From Bradyrhizobium erythrophlei (lineage in GTDB: Bacteria > Pseudomonadota > Alphaproteobacteria > Rhizobiales > Xanthobacteraceae): 64,000 bases of DNA. The position numbers and the translations under genes were made by a program. A model generated the notes under the pieces. The model ran no database searches, had not been told where the DNA came from, and worked only from the letters and a program-made list of their open reading frames with translations. Of the stretch, positions 19,715-32,993 are shown piece after piece. Each line of letters opens with the position of its first letter. Position 1 is the first letter of the stretch. Where the stretch lies: NCBI RefSeq assembly GCF_900129505.1, contig NZ_LT670818.1, positions 5,551,001 to 5,615,000 of the forward strand. Reading direction: 5' to 3'.

Positions 19715-20060
19715 TTCTGGCTCTATCGCTGCCAAAACTACGATCGGGCCCGTCCAACCCTGGCCGCCGGAAGTGCCGCACGCTACTTTGTGTCTGACCT
19801 TGAAAAGGTGACACGTGTTTCTGCGGTAGGTGCACAAGCTCGTCTGGTCCTGCGACGCTGCGCCAAGGAAGGAGCGACGCAATCGAGGACGAGCAAGCCA
19901 TTTCATCTAAGCGCTTGAAACGAAAGGAAAACGCTTTAGCTCTAAGTCTCTGATCAATTATCGGTCCAACGATTAACTGTTCCAGGCGTGACGATAAAGC
20001 GGAATACCATTAATATGTTAGCGCCTCGATTTTCCATTGCCCCGATGATGGATTGGACCG
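19715..20060 (+). repeat. Repeat copy A: dusA upstream region plus first dusA codons
   Basis: This stretch is repeated at 29541-29905. The 3' end, from ATG 20015, reads MLAPRFSIAPMMDWTGRSQK, where FSIAPMMDWT is the N-terminal signature of tRNA-dihydrouridine synthase A; the dusA frame is lost right after it. By eye about 61 of the last 70 bases match copy B. The start of dusA is a known integration site of phages and islands, so I read this as an attachment-site relic. Similarity upstream includes TCTATCGC(T/C)GCCAAAACTACGA. Confidence 0.6.
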
Positions 20061-20602
20061 GGAGATCTCAAAAAGCAAAAGTACAATCAGTACTTAAGAG
20101 CGGTCGTCGCTCGCCGTGCAGTACCGAACGCAGTACCGCTCCATTGAGATGAGTGCCATGTAGCGAACAAAATTCGGCTTCCTGCTGCGCTCGGCGGCTG
20201 CAGAGCGCGCGATTGCATCTCCGGCCCTCATACGCTTGTCGCAACTTCATCCTGAAGATTGGCAGAGACGTTGCAGGCTCAGCCGGCGTGGGTTGGTAGC
20301 GGATCCCGCTACGCCATCCCACTAACCTCTATCCCAAACTACGATTTTTCGCGATTTTGCGCGCCTGATGGCAGCGTCTAACAGCGCGTTAGATTTTGTG
20401 CAATGAGCGGTTATGGAATGCTTGCGGCCCCCCGCTCGGCCACATCGCCACGCGCGGCATCAATGGTCGTTCAGATGGCGAGAAAGTCTGCTCGTTAGGC
20501 AACATCGTAATCTACCAGGGACGATTGGCACGTGATCCAGAGATCGCTTTACTGCCGAGCGGCCGTCGGCGGTTCGACGGACCGCGTGAAGCCGCTTCTT
20601 TC

Positions 20603-20626
20603 AATTTCAAGACAAGAACCGGAGTT
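20603..20626 (+). promoter_or_regulatory. Putative Ada-box-like operator 1
   Basis: AATTTCAAGACAAG, then AAC, then CGGAGTT: a variant of the 24-bp motif repeated in this island, 79 bp before the SnoaL-like gene. The AAT half-site is present, the second half reads ACAA instead of GCAA. Confidence 0.5.
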
Positions 20627-20705
20627 CTGCTCGGGGGGACGATGCCTAGTGATTGCAGCGATCGCCAGTCGATCTGTAGTTCCTGCAAAACAAAGGTGTC
20701 TTTCA

Positions 20706-21158
20706 ATGAGCAAACAAGATGATAACAAGGCCGTCGTTGGTCGTTGGTTCACGGAATTCTGGGGCAAGACCGTCAATCTTGGTGTCATCGACGAGATCGC
20801 CGCCCCCGAAATGCTGCTGAAATATTCGCTGCATGAGCCCCGGCGCGGCCGCGCCGACATCAAGGCGTTCATGACCGGCTTCCGCGCGGCGTTTCCCGAT
20901 CTGAACTTCTGGGGCACCGCGGATCTGATCGCCGAAGGCGACTATGTCGTGGGTCAATGGGAAGGCGGCGGCACCCACACCGGCCCGGCATTCAACGATT
21001 TCCTGATCGGCGGCCTTCCGGCTGCGACCGGCCGCAAGATGCACTTCACGGGCACCACGGTGCTCAAGGTCGTCGACGGCAAGATCGTCGAGGAGATCGG
21101 TCTCGATGACGGCGTCACCGCGCTGACCCAGCTCGGGTTGCTTAAGGCGGCGGCCTGA
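20706..21158 (+). CDS. SnoaL-like / ester cyclase family protein
   Basis: A 150-aa protein of the NTF2-like fold. Typical elements are the N-terminal helix (NKAVVGRWFTEFWGKTVNLG), the RGRADIKAFMTGFRAAFPDL segment of the SnoaL family and the closing strands TGRKMHFTGTTVLKVVDGKI. The ATG at 20706 is preferred over the open frame from 20532, which adds a basic segment. Members include polyketide cyclases and many uncharacterised proteins, so the reaction cannot be named. It lies downstream of a copy of the island's repeated motif and is followed by a strong terminator, so it should be its own transcription unit. Confidence 0.82.
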   Translation: MSKQDDNKAVVGRWFTEFWGKTVNLGVIDEIAAPEMLLKYSLHEPRRGRADIKAFMTGFRAAFPDLNFWGTADLIAEGDYVVGQWEGGGTHTGPAFNDFLIGGLPAATGRKMHFTGTTVLKVVDGKIVEEIGLDDGVTALTQLGLLKAAA

Positions 21159-21200
21159 TCGGAACGCATCCGTACCATCAGTATGTCCGATGTCTTTGAG

Positions 21201-21236
21201 CGAGGCTCGCACGTCGTGCGAGCCTCGTCTGCTTTT
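21201..21236 (+). terminator. Rho-independent terminator after the SnoaL-like gene
   Basis: CGAGGCTCGCAC at 21201-21212 pairs over 12 bases with GTGCGAGCCTCG at 21216-21227 around a three-base loop, followed by TCTGCTTTT. It lies 42 bp after the stop codon at 21158. Confidence 0.75.
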
Positions 21237-21273
21237 GCAGCGGCAAGAACCAGCATCTCGGCGAGCGATGTTG

Positions 21274-21297
21274 GATTGCATCGCAGGAAGCGGAGCG
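21274..21297 (+). promoter_or_regulatory. Putative Ada-box-like operator 2 (weak copy)
   Basis: GATTGCATCGCAGG, then AAG, then CGGAGCG: 16 of 24 positions match the island motif by eye, 65 bp before the cytidylyltransferase gene. Weak on its own, but the position fits the other copies. Confidence 0.35.
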
Positions 21298-21362
21298 TGC
21301 CGCTGCCATCGTCACGGTAGCGTCTGCCACGCTGAAGTCCCGATGAGAACAGGACCACTCAC

Positions 21363-21827
21363 ATGATCCGCATTGGTTACGCGCCGGGCGCATACGATCT
21401 CTTTCACATCGGCCATCTCAATTTGCTCCGTCGCGCCAGGGAGCACTGCGAATATCTGATCGCTGGCGTCGTGGCAGACGAAGTGCTGATCCGGCACAAG
21501 GGGGTGGCGCCGGTGATTCCCCTCGCCGAACGGCTCGAGATCGTCCGCAACGTTCGTTTCGTCGACGCCGCGGTCCCAGCACTGACGAACGACAAGGTCG
21601 ACATCTGGAAGGATCTTCGCTTCAATGTTCTGTTCAAGGGAAACGACTGGCAGGGCACCGAAAAGGGCAACAAGCTCGAGCGCGACTTCGCGGCGCTCGG
21701 CGTCGAGGTCGTCTACTTTCCCTACACGCTTTCCACGTCGAGCAGTGCGCTTCGTCGCACCCTGCAGAACATCGACGCTCTGGCCGGCCATACGTCCAGT
21801 GGCTCCGATCTTGAGCGCGCGGCCTGA
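21363..21827 (+). CDS. Cytidylyltransferase-like protein (TagD/GCT family)
   Basis: A 154-aa nucleotidyltransferase. The N-terminal GYAPGAYDLFHIGHLNLLRR holds the catalytic HxGH (HIGH), as in glycerol-3-phosphate and ethanolamine-phosphate cytidylyltransferases. RHKGVAPVIPLAERLEIVRN is the usual middle segment, and KGNDWQGT corresponds to the substrate loop. The C-terminal RTEGISTT of the family is replaced by PYTLSTSSSALRR, so the substrate may differ. The expected product is a CDP-alcohol, and a CDP-alcohol phosphotransferase gene lies 1.5 kb downstream in the same island. Confidence 0.85.
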   Translation: MIRIGYAPGAYDLFHIGHLNLLRRAREHCEYLIAGVVADEVLIRHKGVAPVIPLAERLEIVRNVRFVDAAVPALTNDKVDIWKDLRFNVLFKGNDWQGTEKGNKLERDFAALGVEVVYFPYTLSTSSSALRRTLQNIDALAGHTSSGSDLERAA

Positions 21828-21863
21828 GCGGCTCGCCGACCCCAGCAAAGGAGGACACTCGCC

Positions 21864-22106
21864 ATGTCAGCGTTGGGAGTGGACGCGCCTGTCCGAAGCC
21901 GCCGTTCATGGGCTTTTCTGAGCAATATCCGCGCGATTGGCGCCACCAAGCGCGCCGATGTCGTTCGTATCCGCCAGCGAGGAGGGGAACGCGTGTCGGG
22001 GGGCCGCGCACACGCATCGCCTCGCCGAGACGCGCCGCTTGGGACGACTCGGCGACGCGTCGTTCTCGGCCCGCGACTTGAATCGTCGCCGGCGCCTTCG
22101 ATTTGA
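21864..22106 (+). CDS. Short ORF with strong ribosome site, possibly a truncated gene
   Basis: AAAGGAGG lies nine bases before ATG 21864, one of the best ribosome sites in the window, and the frame follows the cytidylyltransferase by 36 bp. The first about 40 residues ([20 protein letters not shown]) look protein-like; the remainder is Arg/Pro-rich and runs into the regulatory motif of ada. I suspect the 5' end of a former co-transcribed gene whose body was lost. No family recognised. Confidence 0.42.
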
Positions 22107-22123
22107 AGGCAAGGACCGGAGTG
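22100..22123 (+). promoter_or_regulatory. Putative Ada-box-like operator 3, upstream of ada
   Basis: GATTTGAAGGCAAG, then GAC, then CGGAGTG, ending 53 bp before the ada start codon. GAT-N6-GCAA matches the AAT-N6-GCAA layout of the E. coli Ada operator, so autoregulation is plausible. Confidence 0.6.
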
Positions 22124-22176
22124 CGCCCTCGGAAATCGGGTGGCAACGTCTCTGGTATCGTGGAGACTGGAAACCG

Positions 22177-23268
22177 ATGACCGCAGCGCTCGTTCAATTC
22201 CGGAAACAGATGCCCCTACCGGTCGCGGATGATCCTCGATGGGCCCGCGTCCTCGCGCGCGACAAGACGGCCGATGGTCACTTCTGGTATACGGTTTCGA
22301 CGACGGGGGTCTATTGTCGTCCGTCGTGCCCCTCGCGGACGGCAAACCCGACAAACGTACAGCTTCACGACAGCCTGGCAAGCGCCAAGGCGACGGGCTT
22401 TCGCCCCTGCAGGCGTTGCAATCCGGACGGGCCCTCTGTCGAAGCCGAGAATGCCACCTCGGTCGCCAAGGCGTGCCGCATCATCGAGACGAGCGAGGAG
22501 GAGCCTTCGCTGGAGGATCTGGCTGAGGCAGTTGGCATGAGCTCTGGCTACTTTCATCGCATGTTCAAGGCCGCAACTGGACTCACGCCGAAGAGCTATG
22601 CCGCCGCGCACCGTGCCAAGAAGGTCCGCGAAGGTCTGGTTTCCGGCAATTCCGTCACCGAGGCGATTTACGACGCCGGCTTCAATTCGAGCGGGCGGTT
22701 CTATGAGAAATCGACCGACATGCTCGGCATGACGCCATCGCAGTATCGCGCCGGAGGGGCGAACGAGGAGATCAGGTTCGCGGTCGGTCAAACTTCTCTC
22801 GGCGCCATTCTGGTCGCATCGAGCAAGAAGGGCGTCGCCGCTATCCTTCTCGGGGACGACGCGGAGGAGCTCGTCCACGACCTTCAGGATCGCTTCCCCA
22901 AGGCGCGTCTGATCGGCGCCGACCGTGACTATGAGGCGATGGTCGCGCGGGTGGTCGGCTTCGTGGAAGCGCCGGAGATCGGTCTCGATCTGCCGCTCGA
23001 CATTCGCGGCACTGCGTTCCAGCAGCGGGTCTGGCAGGCGCTTCAGGAAATTCCCGTCGGCGCGACGGTCTCCTATGCCGATCTCGCGCGGCGGATCGGG
23101 GCTCCCAAAGCGGTGCGCGCGGTCGCCGGCGCTTGTGCGGCGAACAAGCTCGCGGTCGCCATTCCGTGCCACCGCGTGATCCGCAACGACGGGTCGGCAT
23201 CCGGATATGCCTGGGGAGTGGAACGCAAGCGCGCCCTGTTGGACAGGGAAGCCTCGCAAGCCAGCTGA
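22177..23268 (+). CDS. ada: Ada: methyl-sensing transcription activator and O6-methylguanine-DNA methyltransferase
   Basis: A 363-aa bifunctional protein of full Ada length. Residues 20-85 form the phosphotriester-repair and DNA-binding domain, with zinc-ligand Cys 47, 51, 78 and 81 (YCRPSC and CRRC). Residues 95-192 are an AraC-type helix-turn-helix domain. Residues 200-355 are the methyltransferase, with active-site PCHR at Cys 331 and the usual [14 protein letters not shown]. Start at ATG 22177 is chosen because upstream codons lose Ada similarity. Family knowledge: methyl transfer to the N-terminal Cys turns Ada into an activator of its regulon. Nine motif copies around it suggest the genes it controls. 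The CDP-alcohol phosphotransferase gene follows after 42 bp. Confidence 0.96.
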
Positions 23269-23310
23269 ACCGCGCCGCAATCGACCCCGAGTCCCGATGA
23301 CGAGTTCGCC

Positions 23311-23979
23311 ATGCGCGTCCCGAGAGGTTTCACGCGCCGGACCGCGCTACGCGTTCCTCGCGGCAACCTCGCTAACCTGCTGAAGCCTCTGCTTCGAAGG
23401 GCGTTGCGGCCCATCGCCGGCCGTCTGTACGAAGCGGGCGTCACCGCCAATCAAGTAACGTCGACGTCCCTCATCGGCTCCGTCCTGGTTGGCGCGATCC
23501 TTTGCCGCTTTGCGGACTATTTCTCGTCGTTCGCGATGCTTCCGGCCTGGCTCGTGGCGCGTACTGCATTCGCGGCCGTCGATGGAACGCTCGCCATCGA
23601 ATTCGGGCAAAAGAGCCGCGTCGGCGGCGTCTTGAACGAGGTAGGCGATGTCGTTTCGGATATCGCTCTCTTCTCGCCGCTTGCGTTTGTTCCTCCGTTT
23701 TCGGGCGCCTCGATTGCGTTGGTCGTCTGCTTTGCGGCCATGTCCGAGTTCGTCGGTGTGGCCGGGACGATGCTGAGCGGCACCCGCCGGCTCGAAGGCC
23801 CGCTTGGAAAAGTAGATCGATCGATCGTGCTCGCGCTTGTCGCGATAGCGATCGCCGCGTGTGGCCGGCTTCCCGAAGGCGCGTGGCTCGTCGTGCCGGC
23901 GCTCTGCCTTGGGCTGGTCATCACCATTTGGAATCGCTTGCGCTTCGCGCTGGTCGAGCGGGGGACGCAAACCTGGTAA
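23311..23979 (+). CDS. CDP-alcohol phosphotransferase family membrane protein, atypical active site
   Basis: A 222-aa membrane protein with about six helices and the family region at about residues 91-118, which begins DGTLAIEFGQKSR and ends GGVLNEVGD. The canonical signature is D-x2-D-G-x2-A-R-x8-G-x3-D-x3-D. Here the first Asp is Ala, the Arg is Ile and the third Asp is Asn (the Asn also occurs in the YnjF-like branch, LNELGD). Activity is therefore uncertain. Normal members join a CDP-activated alcohol to a lipid or polyol at the inner membrane. It follows ada by 42 bp and is probably co-transcribed with it. Confidence 0.8.
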   Translation: MRVPRGFTRRTALRVPRGNLANLLKPLLRRALRPIAGRLYEAGVTANQVTSTSLIGSVLVGAILCRFADYFSSFAMLPAWLVARTAFAAVDGTLAIEFGQKSRVGGVLNEVGDVVSDIALFSPLAFVPPFSGASIALVVCFAAMSEFVGVAGTMLSGTRRLEGPLGKVDRSIVLALVAIAIAACGRLPEGAWLVVPALCLGLVITIWNRLRFALVERGTQTW

Positions 23980-23987
23980 TTCCATGG

Positions 23988-24011
23988 ATTTTGACGACAA
24001 TAATCGGAGTG
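23988..24011 (+). promoter_or_regulatory. Putative Ada-box-like operator 4 (variant copy)
   Basis: ATTTTGACGACAAT, then AAT, then CGGAGTG. The downstream half is perfect, the upstream half is divergent (ACAA for GCAA). It lies 118 bp before the ATG of the next hypothetical gene. Confidence 0.42.
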
Positions 24012-24129
24012 TCGGGTCGCTCTCTCGCGGCTACTAGGATATGGTCGCGGTGATCCGGGCGGGCGTCGGTACCGAAGTCGCTGTTGATCGCCCCCGCGAA
24101 TCGACGGGCGCAAGGAACCTGCTCCGATC

Positions 24130-24381
24130 ATGACGGCATGGTGCGCATTGAAGGCGAAGAAAAGACACGGGAAACGTGTTCGCGCCCAGGCGAGGTCCGC
24201 CGCGCTCGTAGATGGCGTCGAGGCAAATTCCGACAAGGCTCGCGTCATGGCTCATTTCCGGGGGCTAGTCGCCGACGGACTGGCCGAGTGGCAGACGCTC
24301 GATGACGGAACCATCCGGCTCTGTCTCAGCTCCGGCGAAACCTACCTTCTCAGGAAGACGACCGTCACGCGCTTCGCGTGA
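24130..24381 (+). CDS. Hypothetical protein
   Basis: An 83-aa protein. The N-terminal 30 residues are very basic (KAKKRHGKRVRAQAR), while residues 33-83 (SDKARVMAHFRGLVADGLAE, then TIRLCLSSGETYLL) look like a compact alpha/beta fold ending in strands. A later start at ATG 24247 is possible. It lies between one copy of the repeated motif and a strong hairpin, so it forms a separate unit. Family not recognised. Confidence 0.55.
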   Translation: MTAWCALKAKKRHGKRVRAQARSAALVDGVEANSDKARVMAHFRGLVADGLAEWQTLDDGTIRLCLSSGETYLLRKTTVTRFA

Positions 24382-24402
24382 CTTTACCGGACCTTTAGGC
24401 CG

Positions 24403-24442
24403 TCAAACGCGGCCGGATGCCATCGCGTCCGGCCGCGTTTGA
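24403..24442 (+). terminator. Long hairpin, probable terminator
   Basis: TCAAACGCGGCCGGA at 24403-24417 pairs over 15 bases with TCCGGCCGCGTTTGA at 24428-24442, loop of ten. It starts 22 bp after the hypothetical gene. No T run follows, so it may work with Rho or insulate the downstream promoter. Confidence 0.6.
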
Positions 24443-24472
24443 TTCGCGCGGAAGGTCTTCGGAGATTTTCTC

Positions 24473-24496
24473 GGTTTGAAAGCAAACATCGGAGTT
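24473..24496 (+). promoter_or_regulatory. Putative Ada-box-like operator 5
   Basis: GGTTTGAAAGCAAA, then CAT, then CGGAGTT, ending 56 bp before the second methyltransferase gene. GCAA half-site intact. Confidence 0.58.
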
Positions 24497-24552
24497 TGGG
24501 TAAGAGCGCGTGCGCGTAGCTTCGATCACGGGGACAACGAAGGAGTGACACC

Positions 24553-25128
24553 ATGAACCTCATGACATCCGAAGCCGCCTTGCGGCTGCTACCCGCGGCC
24601 GAGCCCGCCAACACGGCGACCGACGTCCTCCTCTTCGGGGTCGGTGACAGCGCGTTGGGCAAGGTTCTGCTCGCCCGCAGCGCCAAGGGCGTCTGCGCGA
24701 TCCTGCTCGGCGACGACGCCGGCGAGCTAGAAGCGGACCTCGCGGGTCGTTTTCCCGAAGCCACTCTCGTCGCGAACGAGGTCATGGTCCGCGACGACCT
24801 GGCGAAGGTGGTCCGCTACGCGGAAAAGCCCTCCGAGGGACTCGACCTCGCGCTCGACATGCGCGGGACGCCGCTTCAGCGCCGGATCTGGCAGCAGATC
24901 TGTGCGATCCCCGTGGGCAATACGATGAGCTACATGCACCTGGCTCGGTTGATCAACAACGTCTATCCGAAGGTCGCCGCTCGCGTGGTGGCAAACGCTT
25001 GCGCCGCCAATATGATCGCGCTCGCCGTTCCTTGCCACCGCGTCATCCGCACGGATGGCGAGCTCGCAGGCTACCGTTGGGGTATCGAGCGCAAGCGCGA
25101 CTTGATCGAGAAGGAGGCGCTGGCATGA
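24553..25128 (+). CDS. Methylated-DNA-[protein]-cysteine S-methyltransferase (Ada C-terminal type), copy 2
   Basis: A 191-aa single-domain protein corresponding to the last third of Ada. It has the N-terminal subdomain (LFGVGDSALGKVLLARSAKG), RGTPLQRRIWQQICAIPVGN and the active-site PCHR at Cys 161, then GYRWGIERKRDLIEKEAL. It removes O6-methyl groups from guanine in a one-use reaction. AAGGAG precedes ATG 24553. Its stop overlaps the start of the 2OG-Fe(II) oxygenase by ATGA, so the two are translationally coupled. It resembles the Ada C-terminus more closely than copy 3 does, by eye. Confidence 0.93.
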   Translation: MNLMTSEAALRLLPAAEPANTATDVLLFGVGDSALGKVLLARSAKGVCAILLGDDAGELEADLAGRFPEATLVANEVMVRDDLAKVVRYAEKPSEGLDLALDMRGTPLQRRIWQQICAIPVGNTMSYMHLARLINNVYPKVAARVVANACAANMIALAVPCHRVIRTDGELAGYRWGIERKRDLIEKEALA

Positions 25129-25874
25129 GGCCGAACACTTCCATCGTCACGACGGCTTTCGCGGGCGTGCCCGCGGAAGCCCGGGTCGCGGCCTACGACT
25201 GGCAGGCGCTCGCGCAGGATCTCGACGGCTTCGGCTGTGCCGTCCTGCCGAAGCTCCTGTCGCCCGTCGAGTGTCGCGCCATCTCGAGCCTTTATTCCGA
25301 GGAGGTGCATTTTCGCAGCCACGTCCACATGGCGCGGCATGGCTTCGGCAAAGGCGAGTACCGCTACTTCAAGTATCCGCTGCCCGACCTACTCGGCGGC
25401 TTGCGCACGGCGCTCTATCCGCGCCTCGTGGACGTCGCCAACGAGTGGAACGATCGTATGGCAATCGACGAGCGGTATCCCGTCGAGCACGCTTCGTTTC
25501 TGAAGCAATGCCATGAGGCCGGCCAGGCGCGGCCGACGCCGCTTTTGCTGCAGTACGTGCCCGGCGACTTCAACTGTCTGCATCAGGACCTCTATGGCGA
25601 TCTTTTCTTTCCGGTTCAGGTCGCGATCCTTCTCTCGGAGCCCGGCGCTGATTTCACCGGCGGGGAGTTTGTCCTGACAGAACAACGGCCGCGGATGCAA
25701 AGTCGCGCCGAGGTCGTCCCGCTTCGACAGGGTGATGCGGTGGCCTTCGCGGTTCATAACCGACCGGTGCGAGGGACGAAGCGCAATTACCGCGTGAACC
25801 TCCGGCACGGCGTCAGCCGCTTGCGCTCCGGCATGCGTCATACCGTCGGCATCATCTTTCACGACGCGAAATAG
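25125..25874 (+). CDS. 2OG-Fe(II) oxygenase, probable alkylation-repair or related dioxygenase
   Basis: A 249-aa protein. H153 and D155 in LLQYVPGDFNCLHQDLYGDL form the iron-binding HxD, and H211 in the AVHNRPV segment is the likely second His; Arg residues near 219-227 (GTKRNYRVNLRHG) would bind 2-oxoglutarate. DFTGGEFVLTEQRPR is typical of 2OG-Fe(II) oxygenases. The start codon lies inside the stop of the methyltransferase gene, so it is made together with a DNA repair enzyme. That context suggests an AlkB-like role, but the overall sequence is not classical AlkB and a protein or small-molecule substrate is possible. Confidence 0.8.
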   Translation: MRPNTSIVTTAFAGVPAEARVAAYDWQALAQDLDGFGCAVLPKLLSPVECRAISSLYSEEVHFRSHVHMARHGFGKGEYRYFKYPLPDLLGGLRTALYPRLVDVANEWNDRMAIDERYPVEHASFLKQCHEAGQARPTPLLLQYVPGDFNCLHQDLYGDLFFPVQVAILLSEPGADFTGGEFVLTEQRPRMQSRAEVVPLRQGDAVAFAVHNRPVRGTKRNYRVNLRHGVSRLRSGMRHTVGIIFHDAK

Positions 25875-25993
25875 CAAAGCTTGGGCGGCGCGCCGTCGCC
25901 CCGCTCCAGATTCAACGACCTGTCAACCCGACCGCAGGAGCTCCTCATGACTCATGCGCGGAGAGGCAATTCTCTTTTCGAACGGTGAACGTC

Positions 25994-26476
25994 ATGAAAC
26001 TCGTCAGAATGGCCGATGGAAAGATTGGGCTCTTCGTGCTGTTGCCCAAGGGAGCCTACGCGATCGATATCGCGAGCAGCTTGGGCGTCTTCTCCCACGA
26101 CCCGCTGTCAAACGGTCTCCTCAACGGCGTACTGAAAGACGGCCATCACTGGTCGCTCCTGGTAAACCACTGGGCCCACTTGCGCTCGCCCCTCAAGAGG
26201 CTGCAAAATATCGCGCTGCGAAGTCCGGATCATCCGAGCCTGGTCTTGCAGCCCCTCACGAGCGGCCCGCCCGCCGCCTGTGTCGGCGATCCGATCATCG
26301 CCATCGAAATTACGGACATCGAGACCTTCGAGGAGCAAGATCCGACGGGTCGGCGCGCAATGGAGCGGCAGTTCATGCCGCCTCCGGAGAGCAATTCGCC
26401 ACGCGGCTCGATGGCGACAGAAACTGCGCAGGTGATCGACTTCTCTTCTATTAGAGGCGATTCCTCTCGGAGGTAG
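25994..26476 (+). CDS. Hypothetical protein, N-terminus like fumarylacetoacetate hydrolase family
   Basis: A 160-aa protein starting MKLVRMADGKIGLFVLLPKG, then YAIDIASSLGVFSHDPLSNG. The opening (MKLVR, DIASS) recalls the small N-terminal domain of fumarylacetoacetate hydrolase proteins, but the catalytic C-terminal domain is absent. Residues 110-130 (EITDIETFEEQDPTGRRAME) look conserved-type; the tail is low complexity. It lies 119 bp after the oxygenase without its own motif copy, so it may be the third gene of that operon. GTG 25985 is an alternative start. Confidence 0.62.
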   Translation: MKLVRMADGKIGLFVLLPKGAYAIDIASSLGVFSHDPLSNGLLNGVLKDGHHWSLLVNHWAHLRSPLKRLQNIALRSPDHPSLVLQPLTSGPPAACVGDPIIAIEITDIETFEEQDPTGRRAMERQFMPPPESNSPRGSMATETAQVIDFSSIRGDSSRR

Positions 26477-26604
26477 CTAAGCCCGCATCGGCAGTGGTCT
26501 CGCTAGATCGATACAAAGACGCGTTGGCGACGACGCTCGACTCGAGCGGCGCCGCCATTTGCGTTCGCTTCGAAGTTTACTGTCGGTCGGCTTCGCTTCT
26601 TTCC

Positions 26605-26628
26605 GATTTGAAAGCAAGGATCGGATCG
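26605..26628 (+). promoter_or_regulatory. Putative Ada-box-like operator 6
   Basis: GATTTGAAAGCAAG, then GAT, then CGGATCG, ending 54 bp before the third methyltransferase gene. Upstream half is identical to the consensus. Confidence 0.58.
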
Positions 26629-26682
26629 GCTCCGCCGATGTCACTTCGTATCTTCGGTACAGACGATGCGAAGGAGCGAAAG

Positions 26683-27213
26683 ATGCGCGAGGTAATCCGT
26701 TTCGCCTGGGGGAATAGTTCTCTCGGCGAGTTCATGGTGGCGATGTCGGATAAGGGCCTCGTGGCCTTAGAGCTCGGCTCGAGTCGTGACTCGGCGGAAG
26801 AGGCGCTGCGAATCCGTTTCCCGGGCGCTGAAGTCGTCAGCAGACAGCTTGAACTGATCGATATTCTCGACAAGATCACGCGCGTTATCGAAGAGCCGAG
26901 GTTCGATCCCGAACTCCCGCTCGATATGCGTGGAACGGCTTACGAGATCGAGGTCTGGTCGATGCTGCGCGTGCTAACCGTCGGCGAGACGATCAGCTAC
27001 GGCGCGTTCGCGGCCAAACTCGGCACGCGCGACGCCCGAGACGTGACCAAGGCAATAGCGTCCAACCCGATCGCCGTGCTTGTGCCATGCCATCGTGTCA
27101 TCAAGAAGGACGGATCGATCTCGGGCTATCGCTGGGGCGTCAAGCGCAAGCGCGAACTGCTGGCGCGCGAGCGACGGGCCAAACCTCTCCCGACTTCGGA
27201 GGGAGATGGATGA
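26683..27213 (+). CDS. Methylated-DNA-[protein]-cysteine S-methyltransferase, copy 3 (divergent)
   Basis: A 176-aa Ada C-terminal-type methyltransferase with RGTAYEIEVWSMLRVLTVGE and active-site PCHR at Cys 136, followed by GYRWGVKRKRELL. I use ATG 26683 with AAGGAG six bases upstream; the frame extends back to 26494, but that would include the regulatory motif as coding sequence. Normally conserved QxxVW is EIEVW and the residues before PCHR (ASNPIAVLV) differ from the other two copies, so lesion preference may differ. A separate motif copy drives it. Confidence 0.9.
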   Translation: MREVIRFAWGNSSLGEFMVAMSDKGLVALELGSSRDSAEEALRIRFPGAEVVSRQLELIDILDKITRVIEEPRFDPELPLDMRGTAYEIEVWSMLRVLTVGETISYGAFAAKLGTRDARDVTKAIASNPIAVLVPCHRVIKKDGSISGYRWGVKRKRELLARERRAKPLPTSEGDG

Positions 27214-27306
27214 AAAGTCATTCGAGTCTATCTTTGCAGGCCGGCAATCGGCAGTGATCCGACTCTGCCACCGGCGTAGCCGGTCTTCCATTGCCGTTAT
27301 TTCCCG

Positions 27307-27669
27307 TCAGCGACCCCACGGACGAAGCGGTGGCGGATCGCCCAGCGGATCCGCAAGATCATCGACGTCGGGAAACAGATCGCGTGTCTCCAATAGCTTT
27401 GTAAGTTCCGTGGGCAGGAGGAAGCGTTCCATGTCCAACAGGGTTTCTCTCGCCCACTTTATCAGGCGTCGAATTTCCGGTGAGGCTGCCTCTCCGTTCA
27501 TCTCCCATTGCGCAACCCACCCGCGCAACTCAAGCGCTTTCCGCTCGGTTTCGATGAGCTTTTGCAGCAGAGCTTCCCGCTCGGTATTCCTCGATTGACG
27601 GGCAGCCGCGAGCCCGCGCCGGTGAGTAAGTTCCTCGACATCACTTCTGGCAGCACGAATGTCGCTCAT
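27307..27669 (-). CDS. Hypothetical coiled-coil protein
   Basis: A 120-aa protein, highly helical and charged. Residues 8-55 (REALLQKLIETERKALELRG) are probably coiled coil, then WVAQWEMNGEAASPEI and a Pro-rich tail (PLGDPPPLRP). No Cys, no membrane segment. A good copy of the island motif lies 58 bp upstream on the same strand, with a GGAAAC ribosome site before the ATG. Family not recognised. Confidence 0.65.
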   Translation of the reverse strand: MSDIRAARSDVEELTHRRGLAAARQSRNTEREALLQKLIETERKALELRGWVAQWEMNGEAASPEIRRLIKWARETLLDMERFLLPTELTKLLETRDLFPDVDDLADPLGDPPPLRPWGR

Positions 27670-28007
27670 GGGAGTTTCCTGATCGTTAGGTGATCAGGCG
27701 AACACTGGGCGTGGGCCAAGGTTTCGACACTCCGTTTCTTGCTTTCGAATTCTAATCGATCTCGAGGTCTGCCCCGGCTGCCAGGGTCGCTGACGAAGTG
27801 GTTCACGACCGCGGCTCGCGGTAGCGGAAATCGAGTACAGCGCGCATCACCGGCCAGATCCGGGACTCCTTGATCTCGTTCAGTTTGATGCACAAGCGAG
27901 CTATAAGCGATCGCCGCACTGCAAGCGCTTTACCGCGTAATGTCGCGCCGGCTTGGCGACTTCTGGCGACACTCGCGATTGCATCCCTCTTGGCGGGTAA
28001 ACGAACG
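27670..28007. other. Intergenic region between two minus-strand genes
   Basis: Contains the minus-strand regulatory motif at 27728-27751. No other gene is supported; plus-strand frames here run antisense through the next gene and are shadows. Confidence 0.4.
27728..27751 (-). promoter_or_regulatory. Putative Ada-box-like operator 7 (minus strand)
   Basis: On the minus strand: AATTCGAAAGCAAG, then AAA, then CGGAGTG, ending 58 bp before the start at 27669. This copy matches the E. coli Ada operator layout AAT-N6-GCAA exactly. Confidence 0.6.
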
Positions 28008-28268
28008 TCAAGCGATGCTACGACGCCGGCGAACGATCGTCAGGGCGGGGCGTTCGGTCTGGGCCGGGCGCGATGGCTCGCCAAAGAGCAGGGCATCCAG
28101 TTGCTTCCGGAGAGCTGCGGCCTCTCGGCGCAAAACGGGGGCATGTGGATTGGCGAAATCGAAATAAAGGCCGACCGACGCGCTCTTGAGAAGGGCCTGG
28201 ACACCCGGCCGCAAGAATTGCCCGCGCGCGGCCGCAAACGTGTAGAGATTGAGGGGAGGAAAGCTCAT
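28008..28268 (-). CDS. Hypothetical protein
   Basis: An 86-aa protein starting MSFPPLNLYTFAAARGQFLR; the ATG has TAGGAGA upstream, whereas the longer frame from GTG 28415 would overlap the preceding gene. Residues 20-55 (VQALLKSASVGLYFDFANPH) look folded, the C-terminus is a basic tail (RRRRS). Second gene of a minus-strand pair under the motif at 28815. Function unknown. Confidence 0.6.
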   Translation of the reverse strand: MSFPPLNLYTFAAARGQFLRPGVQALLKSASVGLYFDFANPHAPVLRREAAALRKQLDALLFGEPSRPAQTERPALTIVRRRRSIA

Positions 28269-28389
28269 TTCGCGGTCTCCTACTGCCAAGGAGCTTCCAG
28301 TTTGCATGGCGTCAGGGTCGCGGCACTCCGATCCTTCTCTGATATTCGCGTTTTGCTGAGGGCGTACTCGCGGGGGCGGAGCCTCACGG

Positions 28390-28767
28390 CTAGTGCGTTT
28401 TGGCGCGATGTCCACCGCCTTCGAGATGTGCCTTGCCCAGTTCTTGCGAGAGTTCCTCGGTGAGGCTGAAGGAGACCGTGAATCCGTCCGGTGTCCCGAT
28501 CGTCAGAATACGAAGATTGTCGGGACCAAGCTCGATCTCAAATTCCCGGAGAGGATATGTGATCCTCATGCTGGGATCGTTGTGCGCACGCTTGACGGCG
28601 CTCGATGCGATCGCCGGCAGTGTCATCAGCAGCGCCGACAGCGTCTCGATCGTCAGGATGATGCCGATCTTGCGGTTCGCGACGTCGCAGACGACAAGCT
28701 TGACCGCGGTGCCATCGGTCGCAGTCTCGAAGTTGATCAATCTCTGAACCTCGATTTCGTTTGTCAT
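28390..28767 (-). CDS. Hypothetical protein
   Basis: A 125-aa protein from ATG 28767 with AAAGGAAAGGG upstream. The body alternates strands and helices (VVCDVANRKIGIILTIETLS, then RITYPLREFEIELGPDNL, then GFTVSFSLTEEL), suggesting a compact alpha/beta fold. No catalytic motif is evident and I do not recognise the family. A motif copy lies 47 bp upstream. It is divergent from the small gene at 28946, which has its own motif copy. Confidence 0.68.
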   Translation of the reverse strand: MTNEIEVQRLINFETATDGTAVKLVVCDVANRKIGIILTIETLSALLMTLPAIASSAVKRAHNDPSMRITYPLREFEIELGPDNLRILTIGTPDGFTVSFSLTEELSQELGKAHLEGGGHRAKTH

Positions 28768-28814
28768 CGTGCGCCCTTTCCTTTCGGGCACGTAGCGCAT
28801 CGGCGTGGTACCGA

Positions 28815-28838
28815 CACTCCGCTTCTTCGCTCCAAACT
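28815..28838 (-). promoter_or_regulatory. Putative Ada-box-like operator 8 (minus strand, variant)
   Basis: On the minus strand: AGTTTGGAGCGAAG, then AAG, then CGGAGTG, ending 47 bp before the start at 28767. The CGGAGTG half is perfect, the Ada-box half is weak. Confidence 0.45.
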
Positions 28839-28862
28839 CCAGCCGCTCCGAATGACGACTTA

Positions 28863-28886
28863 GATTTGAAAGCAAGATCCGGAGTG
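28863..28886 (+). promoter_or_regulatory. Putative Ada-box-like operator 9
   Basis: GATTTGAAAGCAAG, then ATC, then CGGAGTG, ending 59 bp before ATG 28946. The first 14 bases are identical to the copy at 26605. Confidence 0.58.
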
Positions 28887-28945
28887 GCGACCGACCTTCG
28901 CCGATGCAAGCTACCCGACATGTAAGAGGACTCGGGAGTGCAGGA

Positions 28946-29197
28946 ATGATGTCTCTAGGCAATTTCAATGCGATTGCGGCCTCGCGTGGTGAGGGTCTCC
29001 ATCCGAAGCTCCGCGAATTGCTCGATCGCTCAGCCGCCTCTCCATATTCCGAAGTAGCCGTGCGCTACGATGGAATGCTCCAGGCCGGACCGAGCCCGCA
29101 GTCTGAGAAGGGTAGGGTCTCCTCCAGTCAAACTGGGCCGCGACTGATCTACGAGGCTCGCGTATCCCAAATGGGAAAGGCGTCAGAGCGCGCTTAG
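28946..29197 (+). CDS. Small hypothetical protein
   Basis: An 83-aa protein (MMSLGNFNAIAASRGEGLHP, then KLRELLDRSAASPYSEVAVR). GGGAGTGCAGGA precedes the ATG. The N-terminal half is helical, the C-terminal half is polar. It has its own copy of the island motif 59 bp upstream and is the last gene before repeat copy B. No family recognised. Confidence 0.58.
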   Translation: MMSLGNFNAIAASRGEGLHPKLRELLDRSAASPYSEVAVRYDGMLQAGPSPQSEKGRVSSSQTGPRLIYEARVSQMGKASERA

Positions 29198-29540: not shown

Positions 29541-29905
29541 CCAAGTTTTCTTGCTCTATCGCCGCCAAAACTACGACTGCACTTGTTCTACGCTAGGCGT
29601 GGCCAGAGCGGCGCATTACTTTGCGGCCGAAGCGAACGGGATCTGTAAGGAGCGCCCAAACCAGCACGGTACTGCGGGAGCTCATCCGGTACTGCGGCGT
29701 CGTACCGAGAAGGGGAGCCGTGTTCTAGGGGCGAGAAGCCTTCCGAATAAGCACTTGAACTGAAAGGAAAATGCCTCAACTGTCAGCCTGCGATTTCTGT
29801 CGGCCCAAAAATCAGCTATACCGGACGGGATGATAAAGCGAAATAACATCAACATGTTAGCGCATCGATTTTGCATTGCCCCCATGATGGACTGGACCGA
29901 CTGAA
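29541..29905 (+). repeat. Repeat copy B: dusA upstream region plus first dusA codons
   Basis: Second copy of the sequence at 19715-20060. From ATG 29854 it reads MLAHRFCIAPMMDWTD and then stops, so the DusA N-terminal signature is intact but the gene body is missing. Upstream similarity begins near TCTATCGCCGCCAAAACTACGA. With copy A it brackets about 9.8 kb. No integrase gene or intact dusA is in the window. Confidence 0.6.
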
Positions 29906-30221
29906 CGAGAAAAGCGAAGCACGGTCAGCATTTAAGTGAGGTCGTACTCAATGATGCTGGACCAAATGCTGTACCGCTGCTGTCCGGAGCTTCGATGAGC
30001 AGGCAATTTCGCGCTCGTGCGTTTGCATAGCGGCAGGAGCGTAACGCAGCGTAGGATTTCGGCCGCCCTAAATTGCATCCTCGTCGCCGATTGTGAGTGT
30101 TGGTGACTCGCTCACTATCGTGATGCCGTCGACGATGTTGAACGGTCTACGATAGGGAACTGATTCCGCCCACATTTTTTTCACCGCTCCTTCGCGACTA
30201 CGGTGCGTCACTCGCCGGACC

Positions 30222-31691: not shown

Positions 31692-32993
31692 CTATTGGTC
31701 GGGCACCTCTACGCGAGGATCGTCAGCCCGCACGGAAGTTTGCAGCCGAGCGGGATCGACTTTCTTGCGGCCTGCCCATTCGACGAGATTGTCCGGGCGA
31801 TACGTCGGATCAGCACGCCACCGCTTGAACACGCTGGCGTCGATCGTCTCGTTGATGTTGATGTGACTTCCGTCGTCCCGAACATCCGGTTCTCGTCCAA
31901 TGGTGCGATAGAGAGGCGGAAAGACCTTGGCGTACCATCCTGAGAGAAAGGACCCGTAGGAGTCGGTTGTCGGCGCTGTCACGGCATCTCCGTCCAGGTC
32001 GACCTCCGAGCGGAATGAAAGGCCGTGTGATTCCGCTTTCTTCATCATCCAGCGCAGCGGGGCCTGATTCAGAAGATCGGTTTCATAGCCGCCGCCGACA
32101 TTGGCATGGGCGCCCACAAACCAGCGTTGCTCTACGCCGGACAAAGGTCGCGGTTGGGCGATGACTACGTTCGGATCTTTCGGGTGATGGACGTCCCAGA
32201 GAGTGGGAGCGAAGTCTGGCCGATGCTCGTCGACGGCAAGGGCGTGATATCCGTTCAGAATGTGGATGCGTAACCCTGTCTGCAGATAGTCAAACTGAGA
32301 ACGGCTGATGCCCGGAATGTTTCCGGCCGCCACGCCGACGGATCCGACGGTATCCCAGACGCCGATCACCTTCACGTTCGCCGGTTGGGAGTATTTAAGC
32401 AGCCACCTTTCCTGTTCCGTCAGCTTGCTGGTGTCTCCGGACGCTTCCATTTCCTTCAACTTCCAGATCGTCTCCTCGTTTCCCTTCCGGTAGCGCTCGA
32501 ACAGCTCGGAGACGCCTATGGGCGAGCCTGCTTTCAGGATGCCGTCGATGGCGACCAAACCAGCCAGAGCTCTGGCCGTAAACGCGCCTCGGCTGAACCC
32601 GAAAATGAAGATCTCGTCGCCGTCGCGGTAATTTTCCACGAGCCATTCGTAGGCGAGGCGAATGTTGTCATCGAGCCCTTGGCCGAAAACGCCGCCCAGA
32701 AAACCGTTGACCCCGATTTCGTAGTAGACGAGCTGAGGCTCGCCATCCTGGCTTTTCGCCGCGCAAAGGGCTCGCATGCGCCAGACGTTCGTATTGCTGT
32801 TGACGCTATTCCACGTGCCGTCGAGAAAAATCGCAAGGCGTTTCTTCTGCTGCTCCGCGCCGGAAAAGGTGGGCTGATTTCCGCTCTTTTCCGGGGGGCG
32901 ACCGATAAACACACCGATCCAGACTATGGCAACGACGGCAAGCAAAAAGCCGATCGTATGCGCAATCCGCTCGATCCATCTCAGAACCTTCAT
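31692..32993 (-). CDS. Membrane-anchored DUF2235 alpha/beta hydrolase (Tle1-like fold)
   Basis: A 433-aa protein. A single N-terminal membrane helix (about residues 12-31) is followed by the DUF2235 domain: KRLAIFLDGTWNS (52-64), the nucleophile elbow GFSRGAFTARAL with Ser 134, GVWDTVGSVG with a likely catalytic Asp, and WFVGAHANVGGGYE with a probable His. Relatives include type VI secretion phospholipase effectors, but no secretion genes or immunity gene are adjacent here and the N-terminal anchor argues for a housekeeping lipase or esterase in the envelope. It could also be accessory cargo. Confidence 0.86.
   Translation of the reverse strand: MKVLRWIERIAHTIGFLLAVVAIVWIGVFIGRPPEKSGNQPTFSGAEQQKKRLAIFLDGTWNSVNSNTNVWRMRALCAAKSQDGEPQLVYYEIGVNGFLGGVFGQGLDDNIRLAYEWLVENYRDGDEIFIFGFSRGAFTARALAGLVAIDGILKAGSPIGVSELFERYRKGNEETIWKLKEMEASGDTSKLTEQERWLLKYSQPANVKVIGVWDTVGSVGVAAGNIPGISRSQFDYLQTGLRIHILNGYHALAVDEHRPDFAPTLWDVHHPKDPNVVIAQPRPLSGVEQRWFVGAHANVGGGYETDLLNQAPLRWMMKKAESHGLSFRSEVDLDGDAVTAPTTDSYGSFLSGWYAKVFPPLYRTIGREPDVRDDGSHININETIDASVFKRWRADPTYRPDNLVEWAGRKKVDPARLQTSVRADDPRVEVPDQ

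What the first reader, a model, noticed from the sequence alone, without database searches (positions are those of the whole stretch)
20603..28886. A repeated Ada-box-like operator marks a compact regulon in the island
A 24-bp motif, GATTTGAAAGCAAG then three variable bases then CGGAGTG, occurs about nine times between 20.6 and 28.9 kb (starts 20603, 21274, 22100, 23988, 24473, 26605, 27728 minus, 28815 minus, 28863). Seven copies end 47-65 bp before a start codon; the copy at 20603 is 79 bp and that at 23988 is 118 bp away. Orientation always follows the gene. Five copies (22100, 24473, 26605, 27728, 28863) have the GCAA half-site preceded by xAT or GGT six bases earlier, the layout of the E. 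coli Ada operator (AAT-N6-GCAA). The CGGAGTG half is not part of that known site and may be a promoter element or a second contact. I noticed no copies elsewhere in the window. Ada itself is among the targets. The unknown genes under this motif would be new members of an adaptive response.
Basis: partly seen in the sequence, partly recalled or inferred. Interest (0 to 1): 0.88.

Follow-up and report, generated by a model that had tools for sequence, protein, structure and literature searches.

The report
Three-part operator of Ada repair regulon
Nine promoters in this chromosomal island carry a three-part binding site that fits the DNA-damage sensor Ada encoded beside them; the same site precedes most of the ada genes sampled here, and the well-studied E. 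coli version appears to be a reduced form that has lost one part.

Summary
In the 9.18-Mb genome the four consensus matches with 0-1 mismatch all lie in the island.

The motif is a tripartite Ada operator with a fixed promoter: A-box [AG]AT, N6, B-box GCAA(G), N3, X-box CGGAGTG, then 20 nt to a TAnnnT -10 element. GCAA-N4-CGG lies within 200 nt upstream of 87 of 105 dereplicated zinc-type Ada genes not chosen by the motif; other spacings give 1-8. The "extra" CGGAGTG is best read as the half-site of Ada's second AraC helix-turn-helix, in place of a -35 box. Its candidate reader, Arg174, is invariant in 32 aligned Adas and aligns with the X-box arginine of Cada2. E. coli Ada has Ser there and its promoter has no X-box.

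This conflicts with the published rule that zinc-type Ada uses A+B boxes and Cada2 B+X. Relatives of several unknown island genes also carry the operator, making them probable adaptive-response members. All evidence is comparative; binding and induction are untested.

The parts
20603..20626 (+). Operator 1 (SnoaL-like gene); A-box AAT, B-box ACAAG, X-box CGGAGTT
   Evidence: matrix score 22.9
20647..20652 (+). -10-like hexamer TAGTGA, 20 nt after operator 1
   Evidence: column conservation
20706..21158 (+). SnoaL-like protein, 150 aa
   Evidence: PF07366 2.7e-28; operator upstream of 13 of 21 other copies
21274..21297 (+). Operator 2 (cytidylyltransferase-like gene), -10 TAGCGT at 21318-21323
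   Evidence: matrix score 20.6
21363..21827 (+). Cytidylyltransferase-like protein, 154 aa
   Evidence: PF01467 2.6e-13; operator upstream of 2 of 5 other copies
22100..22123 (+). Operator 3 (ada), -10 CAACGT at 22144-22149
   Evidence: matrix score 38.2
22177..23268 (+). Ada, 363 aa: zinc domain (C47, R54, R80), AraC HTH1 (R128), HTH2 (R174), methyltransferase
   Evidence: PF02805, PF12833, PF01035; NCBIfam NF011964 452 bits over cut-off 345
23311..23979 (+). CDP-alcohol phosphotransferase-like protein, 222 aa, downstream of ada, no operator of its own
   Evidence: no Pfam match; NCBIfam matches below cut-off
23988..24011 (+). Operator 4 (24130 ORF), -10 TACTAG at 24032-24037
   Evidence: matrix score 19.4
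24130..24381 (+). 83-aa ORF of unknown function
   Evidence: operator at 1 of 3 other copies; in L039 at almost the same distance, 90 against 92 nt
24473..24496 (+). Operator 5 (ogt1 and oxygenase), -10 TAGCTT at 24517-24522
   Evidence: matrix score 28.6
24553..25128 (+). O6-methylguanine-DNA methyltransferase-like (Ogt1)
   Evidence: PF01035 3.9e-28
25125..25874 (+). PF09859 oxygenase, overlaps the end of ogt1
   Evidence: 1.4e-84
25994..26476 (+). 160-aa protein of unknown function, no operator of its own
   Evidence: no Pfam match; 44% identical relative in L038
26605..26628 (+). Operator 6 (ogt2), -10 TATCTT at 26649-26654
   Evidence: matrix score 30.7
26683..27213 (+). O6-methylguanine-DNA methyltransferase-like (Ogt2); start taken as ATG 26683, downstream of the operator
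   Evidence: PF01035 1.1e-25
27728..27751 (-). Operator 7 (27307 ORF), -10 CAGTGT at 27702-27707
   Evidence: matrix score 42.7, the best in the window
27307..27669 (-). 120-aa protein of unknown function
   Evidence: no Pfam match over cut-off
28815..28838 (-). Operator 8 (28393 ORF), -10 TACGTG at 28789-28794
   Evidence: matrix score 18.7, the weakest of the nine
28393..28767 (-). 125-aa protein of unknown function
   Evidence: operator upstream of 3 of 4 other copies; homologue in 7 of 297 order genomes, this one included
28863..28886 (+). Operator 9 (28946 ORF), divergent to operator 8, -10 CAAGCT at 28907-28912
   Evidence: matrix score 34.0
28946..29197 (+). 83-aa protein of unknown function
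   Evidence: operator upstream of 2 of 3 other copies; divergent 28393/28946 pair with an operator for each also in L038 and L039
19962..20140 (+). Left flanking repeat, similar to the 5' end of dusA
   Evidence: 74% identical to the right repeat over 180 columns
29801..29978 (+). Right flanking repeat, similar to the 5' end of dusA
   Evidence: dusA-like reading frame with a 34-nt match at C1:5803945

Best explanation
Each of the nine sites is a tripartite operator for the zinc-type Ada encoded in the island, built into a fixed class-II activator promoter. Ada takes a methyl group from damaged DNA on Cys47 (E. coli Cys38), which lets it bind. The zinc domain reads the A-box ([AG]AT), the first AraC helix-turn-helix reads GCAA, and the second reads the X-box CGGAGTG one helical turn further on, probably through Arg174. 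The X-box occupies the place of a -35 element (about -39 to -33 if the TAnnnT hexamer is the -10), so bound Ada would recruit RNA polymerase to a promoter without a recognisable -35. The result is co-induction of ada, two ogt genes, an oxygenase and several uncharacterised genes carried as one island. E. coli Ada is a reduced form that lost the X-box contact; Cada2 is a form that lost the zinc/A-box contact. Shown here: sequence, geometry, conservation, co-occurrence. Inferred: binding, methyl switch, the arginine contact, induction, direction of evolution.
For: Nine of nine sites recovered by a matrix trained elsewhere, no others in 64 kb; 0 hits in 150 kb of other loci. Leaving out the window and stretches chosen by the motif, GCAA-N4-CGG lies within 200 nt upstream of 87 of 105 dereplicated Ada genes, against 1-8 at spacings 0-3 and 5-10 and 8 in a coding control; shuffles gave 2.2 in the set of 116. 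[AG]AT stands at gap 6 in 68 of 88 such sites, at most 6 at other gaps; TAnnnT starts 35 nt after the B-box G in 44 of 88, 3 at 34, at most 1 at other offsets from 25 to 49. Order sample ranked by zinc domain only: 23 of 25 full-length Adas, of 29 loci fetched. R174-F175-Y176 invariant in 32 Adas; an ungapped alignment puts R174 on the R of Cada2 RLHD and on Ser of E. coli Ada. Where A and B boxes are perfect, R-type Adas score 5 or more of 7 X-box positions in 86 of 87, S/N-type in 1 of 8. An orthologue of this Ada (58-82% identical) lies in 12 of 20 motif-bearing stretches of relatives; no separate Cada2 was seen in the 20. Cada2 genes have the same B-X spacing in 12 of 30, X-box CGGGTGG in 8 of those 12, A-box in none of the 12. 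Cada2 R114 is needed for binding and induction (PMC10957082, Results read).
Against: No binding, footprint or expression data; no structural model. All 8 S/N-type Adas come from E. coli K-12 and one unnamed family (f92), so the residue/X-box association may reflect one or two evolutionary events; the Fisher p of 6e-9 overstates it. Ties between sites were broken in favour of the X-box. Within f92, one R-type Ada (L183) has the X-box and one (L182) does not at its best A+B site. 33 R-type representatives lacked a perfect A+B site within 300 nt and were left out of that table. 8 of the 20 motif-bearing stretches hold no Ada (several are short contigs). The host also has a Cada2 (L060), so cross-talk is possible. 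Window HTH1 has Gly-Tyr where E. coli Ada has Phe114-His115. Four of nine window operators have a degenerate B-box (ACAA, GCAG, ACAA, CGAA).
Confidence: 0.85

Rival explanations
1. The operators belong to the chromosomal Cada2-like regulator (RLHD type), with the island Ada only one of its targets.
For: The genome encodes a Cada2-like protein with RLHD; Cada2 operators share GCAA-N4-CGG (12 of 30); B+X is the published Cada2 site (PMC10957082).
Against: Window X-boxes are CGGAGTG-like, Cada2 X-boxes CGGGTGG in 8 of 12, without A-box in 12 of 12. In relatives 12 of 20 motif-bearing stretches hold a zinc-type Ada orthologue, none a separate Cada2. The host's cada2 has no GCAA-N4-CGG within 350 nt upstream.
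Confidence: 0.07
2. CGGAGTG is not read by Ada but is a promoter element for an alternative sigma factor or a second activator that acts with Ada.
For: It lies where a -35 element would be, at a fixed distance from the -10.
Against: B-box to X-box spacing is rigid, the X-box goes with the HTH2 residue of Ada, and the Cada2 X-box response depends on the aligned arginine (PMC10957082). One helical turn from GCAA fits the second HTH of an AraC-type monomer (recalled geometry).
Confidence: 0.07
3. The motif is a dispersed repeat or chance similarity without regulatory meaning.
For: Only the degeneracy of four copies.
Against: Good matches confined to the island, always pointing at a start codon, recovered by an independent matrix, conserved upstream of ada genes in many genera.
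Confidence: 0.01

Closest known systems
E. coli Ada regulon (A-box AAT, N6, B-box GCAA)
   Same: Zinc + AraC + methyltransferase Ada; A-box and B-box at the same spacing; operator upstream of ada itself; repair genes as targets
   Different: E. coli ada promoter has no X-box and Ada has Ser at the R174 position; the island has nine operators and several genes not in the E. coli regulon
Caulobacter Cada2 adaptive response (B-box GCAA + X-box CGG), PMC10957082
   Same: B-X geometry; arginine at the same place in the second HTH
   Different: Cada2 has no zinc domain and no A-box; its X-box is CGGGTGG in 8 of 12 sites here; its sensing cysteine is in the methyltransferase domain
Pseudomonas putida alkA-ada promoter, PMC3788762 (passages read)
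   Same: Zinc-type Ada, A and B boxes; several other Pseudomonas in my sample have R and a CGGAGTG or CGGGATG X-box
   Different: X-box not mentioned in the passages I read; P. putida KT2440 itself was not in my sample. That its alkA promoter is not induced in E. coli would be explained by an X-box requirement (inference)
MarA/Rob-type AraC monomers on two major-groove half-sites
   Same: Two HTHs reading half-sites about one turn apart (recalled, not tested here)
   Different: Ada adds a third, zinc-domain contact and a methyl switch

Membership tests
EcAda-like (zinc-type) Ada | Four-Cys Ada_Zn_binding domain, AraC domain and methyltransferase in one protein | tested here: met
   PF02805, PF12833/PF00165, PF01035; NF011964 452.4 over cut-off 345
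EcAda-like (zinc-type) Ada | Sensor Cys38 and A-box arginines R45, R71 | tested here: met
   Aligned as C47, R54, R80 (E. coli numbering counted on the sequence)
EcAda-like (zinc-type) Ada | B-box residues F114, H115, R118 | tested here: inconclusive
   R128 present; Phe-His replaced by Gly-Tyr in the window, Phe-His kept in some relatives such as L044 and L053
EcAda-like (zinc-type) Ada | Operator AAT-N6-GCAA | tested here: met
   xAT/GGT-N6-GCAA in 5 of 9 window copies; [AG]AT at gap 6 in 68 of 88 ada sites
EcAda-like (zinc-type) Ada | Methylation-dependent binding and induction | not testable with these tools
   needs experiment
Cada2-like | No zinc domain, RLHD in second HTH | tested here: not met
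   Island Ada has the zinc domain and GRFYE; the genome's separate Cada2 (L060) has RLHD
Cada2-like | Operator B-box + X-box | tested here: met
   GCAA(G)-N3-CGG present, but with an A-box and CGGAGTG instead of CGGGTGG
dusA-integrated island | Flanking dusA 5'-end repeats | tested here: met
   19962-20140 and 29801-29978, 74% identical, reading like the start of DusA
dusA-integrated island | dusA-type integrase in the island | tested here: inconclusive
   no integrase among the 13 island ORFs scanned with Pfam; no dedicated integrase search was made

The most novel reading that the evidence does not exclude
The ancestral Ada switch reads three boxes with three DNA-binding modules (zinc, HTH1, HTH2). 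The E. coli paradigm (A+B) and the Cada2 paradigm (B+X) are two independent reductions of it, so the textbook operator describes an exception; and in rhizobial relatives this switch governs a mobile cassette that includes lipid-head-group and unknown small-protein genes, an adaptive response that goes beyond DNA repair.
Probability: 0.5. Interest if true: 0.75.

Novelty: new variant of a known kind. Interest (0 to 1): 0.64.

Why it matters
It gives zinc-type Ada a precise, testable operator in most genomes sampled here, corrects a published either/or (A+B with zinc-type Ada, B+X with Cada2), offers a reason why Ada promoters do not always work across species, and lets new adaptive-response genes be found by matrix scan. 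The solved N-terminal Ada chains (1zgw 139 aa, 1u8b 133 aa, 1wpk 146 aa) match the island Ada only up to residue 148-155, short of R174, so an X-box contact could not have been seen in them.

Tried and rejected
A dispersed repeat was rejected by the genome scans. Cada2 as the owner of the sites was considered and found unlikely. Phage carriage: an exact scan of viral contigs with a degenerate consensus found 0 matches. Structure prediction of the Ada DNA-binding part was tried four times; the machine was busy each time, so no model supports the R174 contact. Literature searches on Ada operators, Cada2, Ada regulon with RegPrecise, and Ada in Bradyrhizobium showed no description of a three-box Ada operator in the rows listed; each listing shows the top 10-20 rows, and only open-licence PMC papers are held, so absence elsewhere is not shown. 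PMC5343134 was searched for the word Ada: 0 occurrences.

Paper use: PMC10957082, Results section read in three parts and passages, figures not seen; PMC3788762 passages; PMC4437013 passages; PMC4482086, search listing only. The MarA comparison is recalled.

Sampling caveats: the 80 genome-contig loci are the best matches to the query alignment (66 of 80 have GCAA-N4-CGG within 300 nt); the 30 loci are ranked by similarity to E. coli Ada. In some searches, 131 loci gave 123 Ada genes, 4 were dropped as short or not of full type, and 116 remained after 90% dereplication (96 of 116 with the site in 200 nt). Because 11 of the 116 were the window or stretches picked by the motif, the counts were redone without them (105), and those numbers are the ones used above.
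Full report
WHAT IS THERE. Between 20.6 and 28.9 kb there are nine copies of one motif. In the whole genome, good matches are confined to the island.

ANATOMY. Aligning the nine copies shows a further element: 20 nt after CGGAGTG, a hexamer of the form TAnnnT whose second base is A in all nine (seen by eye first). The same arrangement appears upstream of ada genes elsewhere. Of 105 dereplicated zinc-type Ada genes not chosen by the motif, 87 have GCAA-N4-CGG within 200 nt upstream (88 within 300); the ten other spacings from 0 to 10 give 1-8 and a coding control 8; shuffles gave 2.2 in the full set of 116. In the 88 sites [AG]AT stands six bases before GCAA in 68, the X-box is exactly CGGAGTG in 58, and TAnnnT starts 35 nt after the B-box G in 44, with 3 at 34 and at most 1 at other offsets from 25 to 49. 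Of the 19 Ada genes without the exact string, 12 have a site with 1 or 2 mismatches in 15 specified positions within 400 nt, and L038 has its operator further from the start codon that the script chose; six, E. coli among them, have no such site. A sample not chosen for similarity to this Ada (order, ranked by zinc domain) gives 23 of 25 full-length genes (29 loci fetched).

MECHANISM. Known contacts of E. coli Ada are R45 and R71 to the A-box and F114, H115, R118 to the B-box (PMC3788762 and PMC4437013, passages). In the island Ada the sensor cysteine (C47), both A-box arginines (R54, R80) and R128 are kept; F114-H115 are Gly-Tyr. CGGAGTG begins eight bases after the G of GCAA, so the two half-site centres are about one helical turn apart, which suits the two HTHs of an AraC-type monomer (recalled geometry). 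The second HTH carries R174-F175-Y176, invariant in 32 aligned Adas. R174 aligns without a gap with the arginine of the RLHD motif of the host's Cada2; its Caulobacter counterpart R114 is required for promoter binding and induction through B-box plus X-box sites (PMC10957082). E. coli Ada has Ser there, and its ada promoter reads AATTAAAGCGCAAGATTGTTGG, without an X-box. With perfect A and B boxes, R-type Adas have the X-box (5 or more of 7 positions) in 86 of 87 cases and S/N-type in 1 of 8; 33 R-type representatives without a perfect A+B site were left out. The S/N-type come from E. coli and one unnamed family (f92), so this is one or two events, not eight. Within f92 one R-type Ada has the X-box (L183) and one does not at its best site (L182). 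The X-box takes the place of a -35 element, which makes these class-II-like promoters; an Ada-sigma interaction in E. coli is named in a reference title.

WHO OWNS THE SITES. The genome also encodes a Cada2-like protein (L060). Cada2 genes in 30 loci show GCAA-N4-CGG in 12 (shuffle 0.8; 0 at spacing 3), CGGGTGG in 8 of the 12, and no [AG]AT at gap 6 in any of the 12. The paper gives a 3-bp spacer; counting GCAAG as the B-box gives 3, which I could not check against its figure. Of 20 stretches of relatives fetched because they bear the motif, 12 hold an Ada orthologue 58-82% identical to this one, 8 hold none, and no separate Cada2 was seen. The island Ada is the most likely owner; cross-binding by Cada2 is not excluded.

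THE REGULON. Operators precede ada, ogt1 with a PF09859 oxygenase, ogt2, a SnoaL-like gene, a cytidylyltransferase-like gene, and the ORFs at 24130, 27307, 28393 and 28946. In 39 further stretches, counting hits over 40% of the query, an operator of 10 bits or more lies upstream of SnoaL in 13 of 21, ogt1-type 4 of 4, ogt2-type 0 of 1, the cytidylyltransferase 2 of 5, 28393 3 of 4, 28946 2 of 3, the 24130 ORF 1 of 3, 25994 0 of 1, the CDP-alcohol gene 0 of 3, the oxygenase 1 of 8 (often directly downstream of an ada or ogt gene), and Ada-type hits 13 of 24, the last including methyltransferase-only hits. Most of these stretches were fetched because of the motif or of SnoaL, so the fractions are not unbiased. 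Of the 8 SnoaL copies without operator, 6 have no Ada hit in the stretch (L241, L243-L246, L248). The six distant homologues of 28393 (29-36%) have no operator in their loci. ORFs behind further strong operators in relatives look, by eye, like transporters and small exported proteins.

MOBILITY. The island is bounded by two imperfect repeats of about 180 nt resembling the 5' end of dusA, a known integration site (PMC4482086, listing only). None of the 13 island ORFs scanned with Pfam is an integrase.

AGAINST KNOWN SYSTEMS. The protein is a member of the Ada family by its domains. Its operator has the features of both published types. PMC10957082 states that, in the set it collated, organisms with EcAda-like proteins carry the E. 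coli-type features and Cada2 organisms the B+X features; the samples here show that zinc-type Adas commonly have A+B+X. I saw no description of this in the searches named in Tried and rejected. All this is comparative evidence; no step of binding or induction was tested.

Noticed in passing
19962-20140 and 29801-29978; L296: Two dusA-5'-like repeats flank the island, and a dusA-like reading frame lies about 0.19 Mb beyond the window (C1:5803945), as if several elements had entered the same site.
   Followed up: partly
21363-21827 and 23311-23979; L038:13761-14887: A cytidylyltransferase-like and a CDP-alcohol phosphotransferase-like gene recur in Ada-controlled units; in L038 they are neighbours behind one operator. 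A lipid-head-group function in an alkylation response is unexplained.
   Followed up: partly
28008-28274 (-), 28946-29197 (+), L052:6093-6365: Small proteins sharing, by eye, a motif like AAxRGxxLxPxL; the L052 one also lies behind a strong operator.
   Followed up: no
L045:778-1998, L047:5249-6466, L053:4402-5628: ORFs that look like MFS-type transporters (by eye, not scanned) directly behind strong Ada operators in relatives.
   Followed up: no
L043:930-1208, L048:1296-1571: Two related small proteins, apparently exported, with KERLGxKASDEQRVDNCKV, each behind an Ada operator.
   Followed up: no
31692-32993 (-): Protein with a T6SS Tle1-like phospholipase catalytic domain (PF09994), right of the island.
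   Followed up: no
L001, C1:1758581: Second PF02805 protein in the genome: Ada zinc and AraC parts fused to what looks like an AlkA-type glycosylase, next to an ogt; no tripartite operator seen by eye in the 300 nt upstream.
   Followed up: partly
L060:800-865: The host's cada2 has a CGGGTGG string upstream but no GCAA at the expected place.
   Followed up: no
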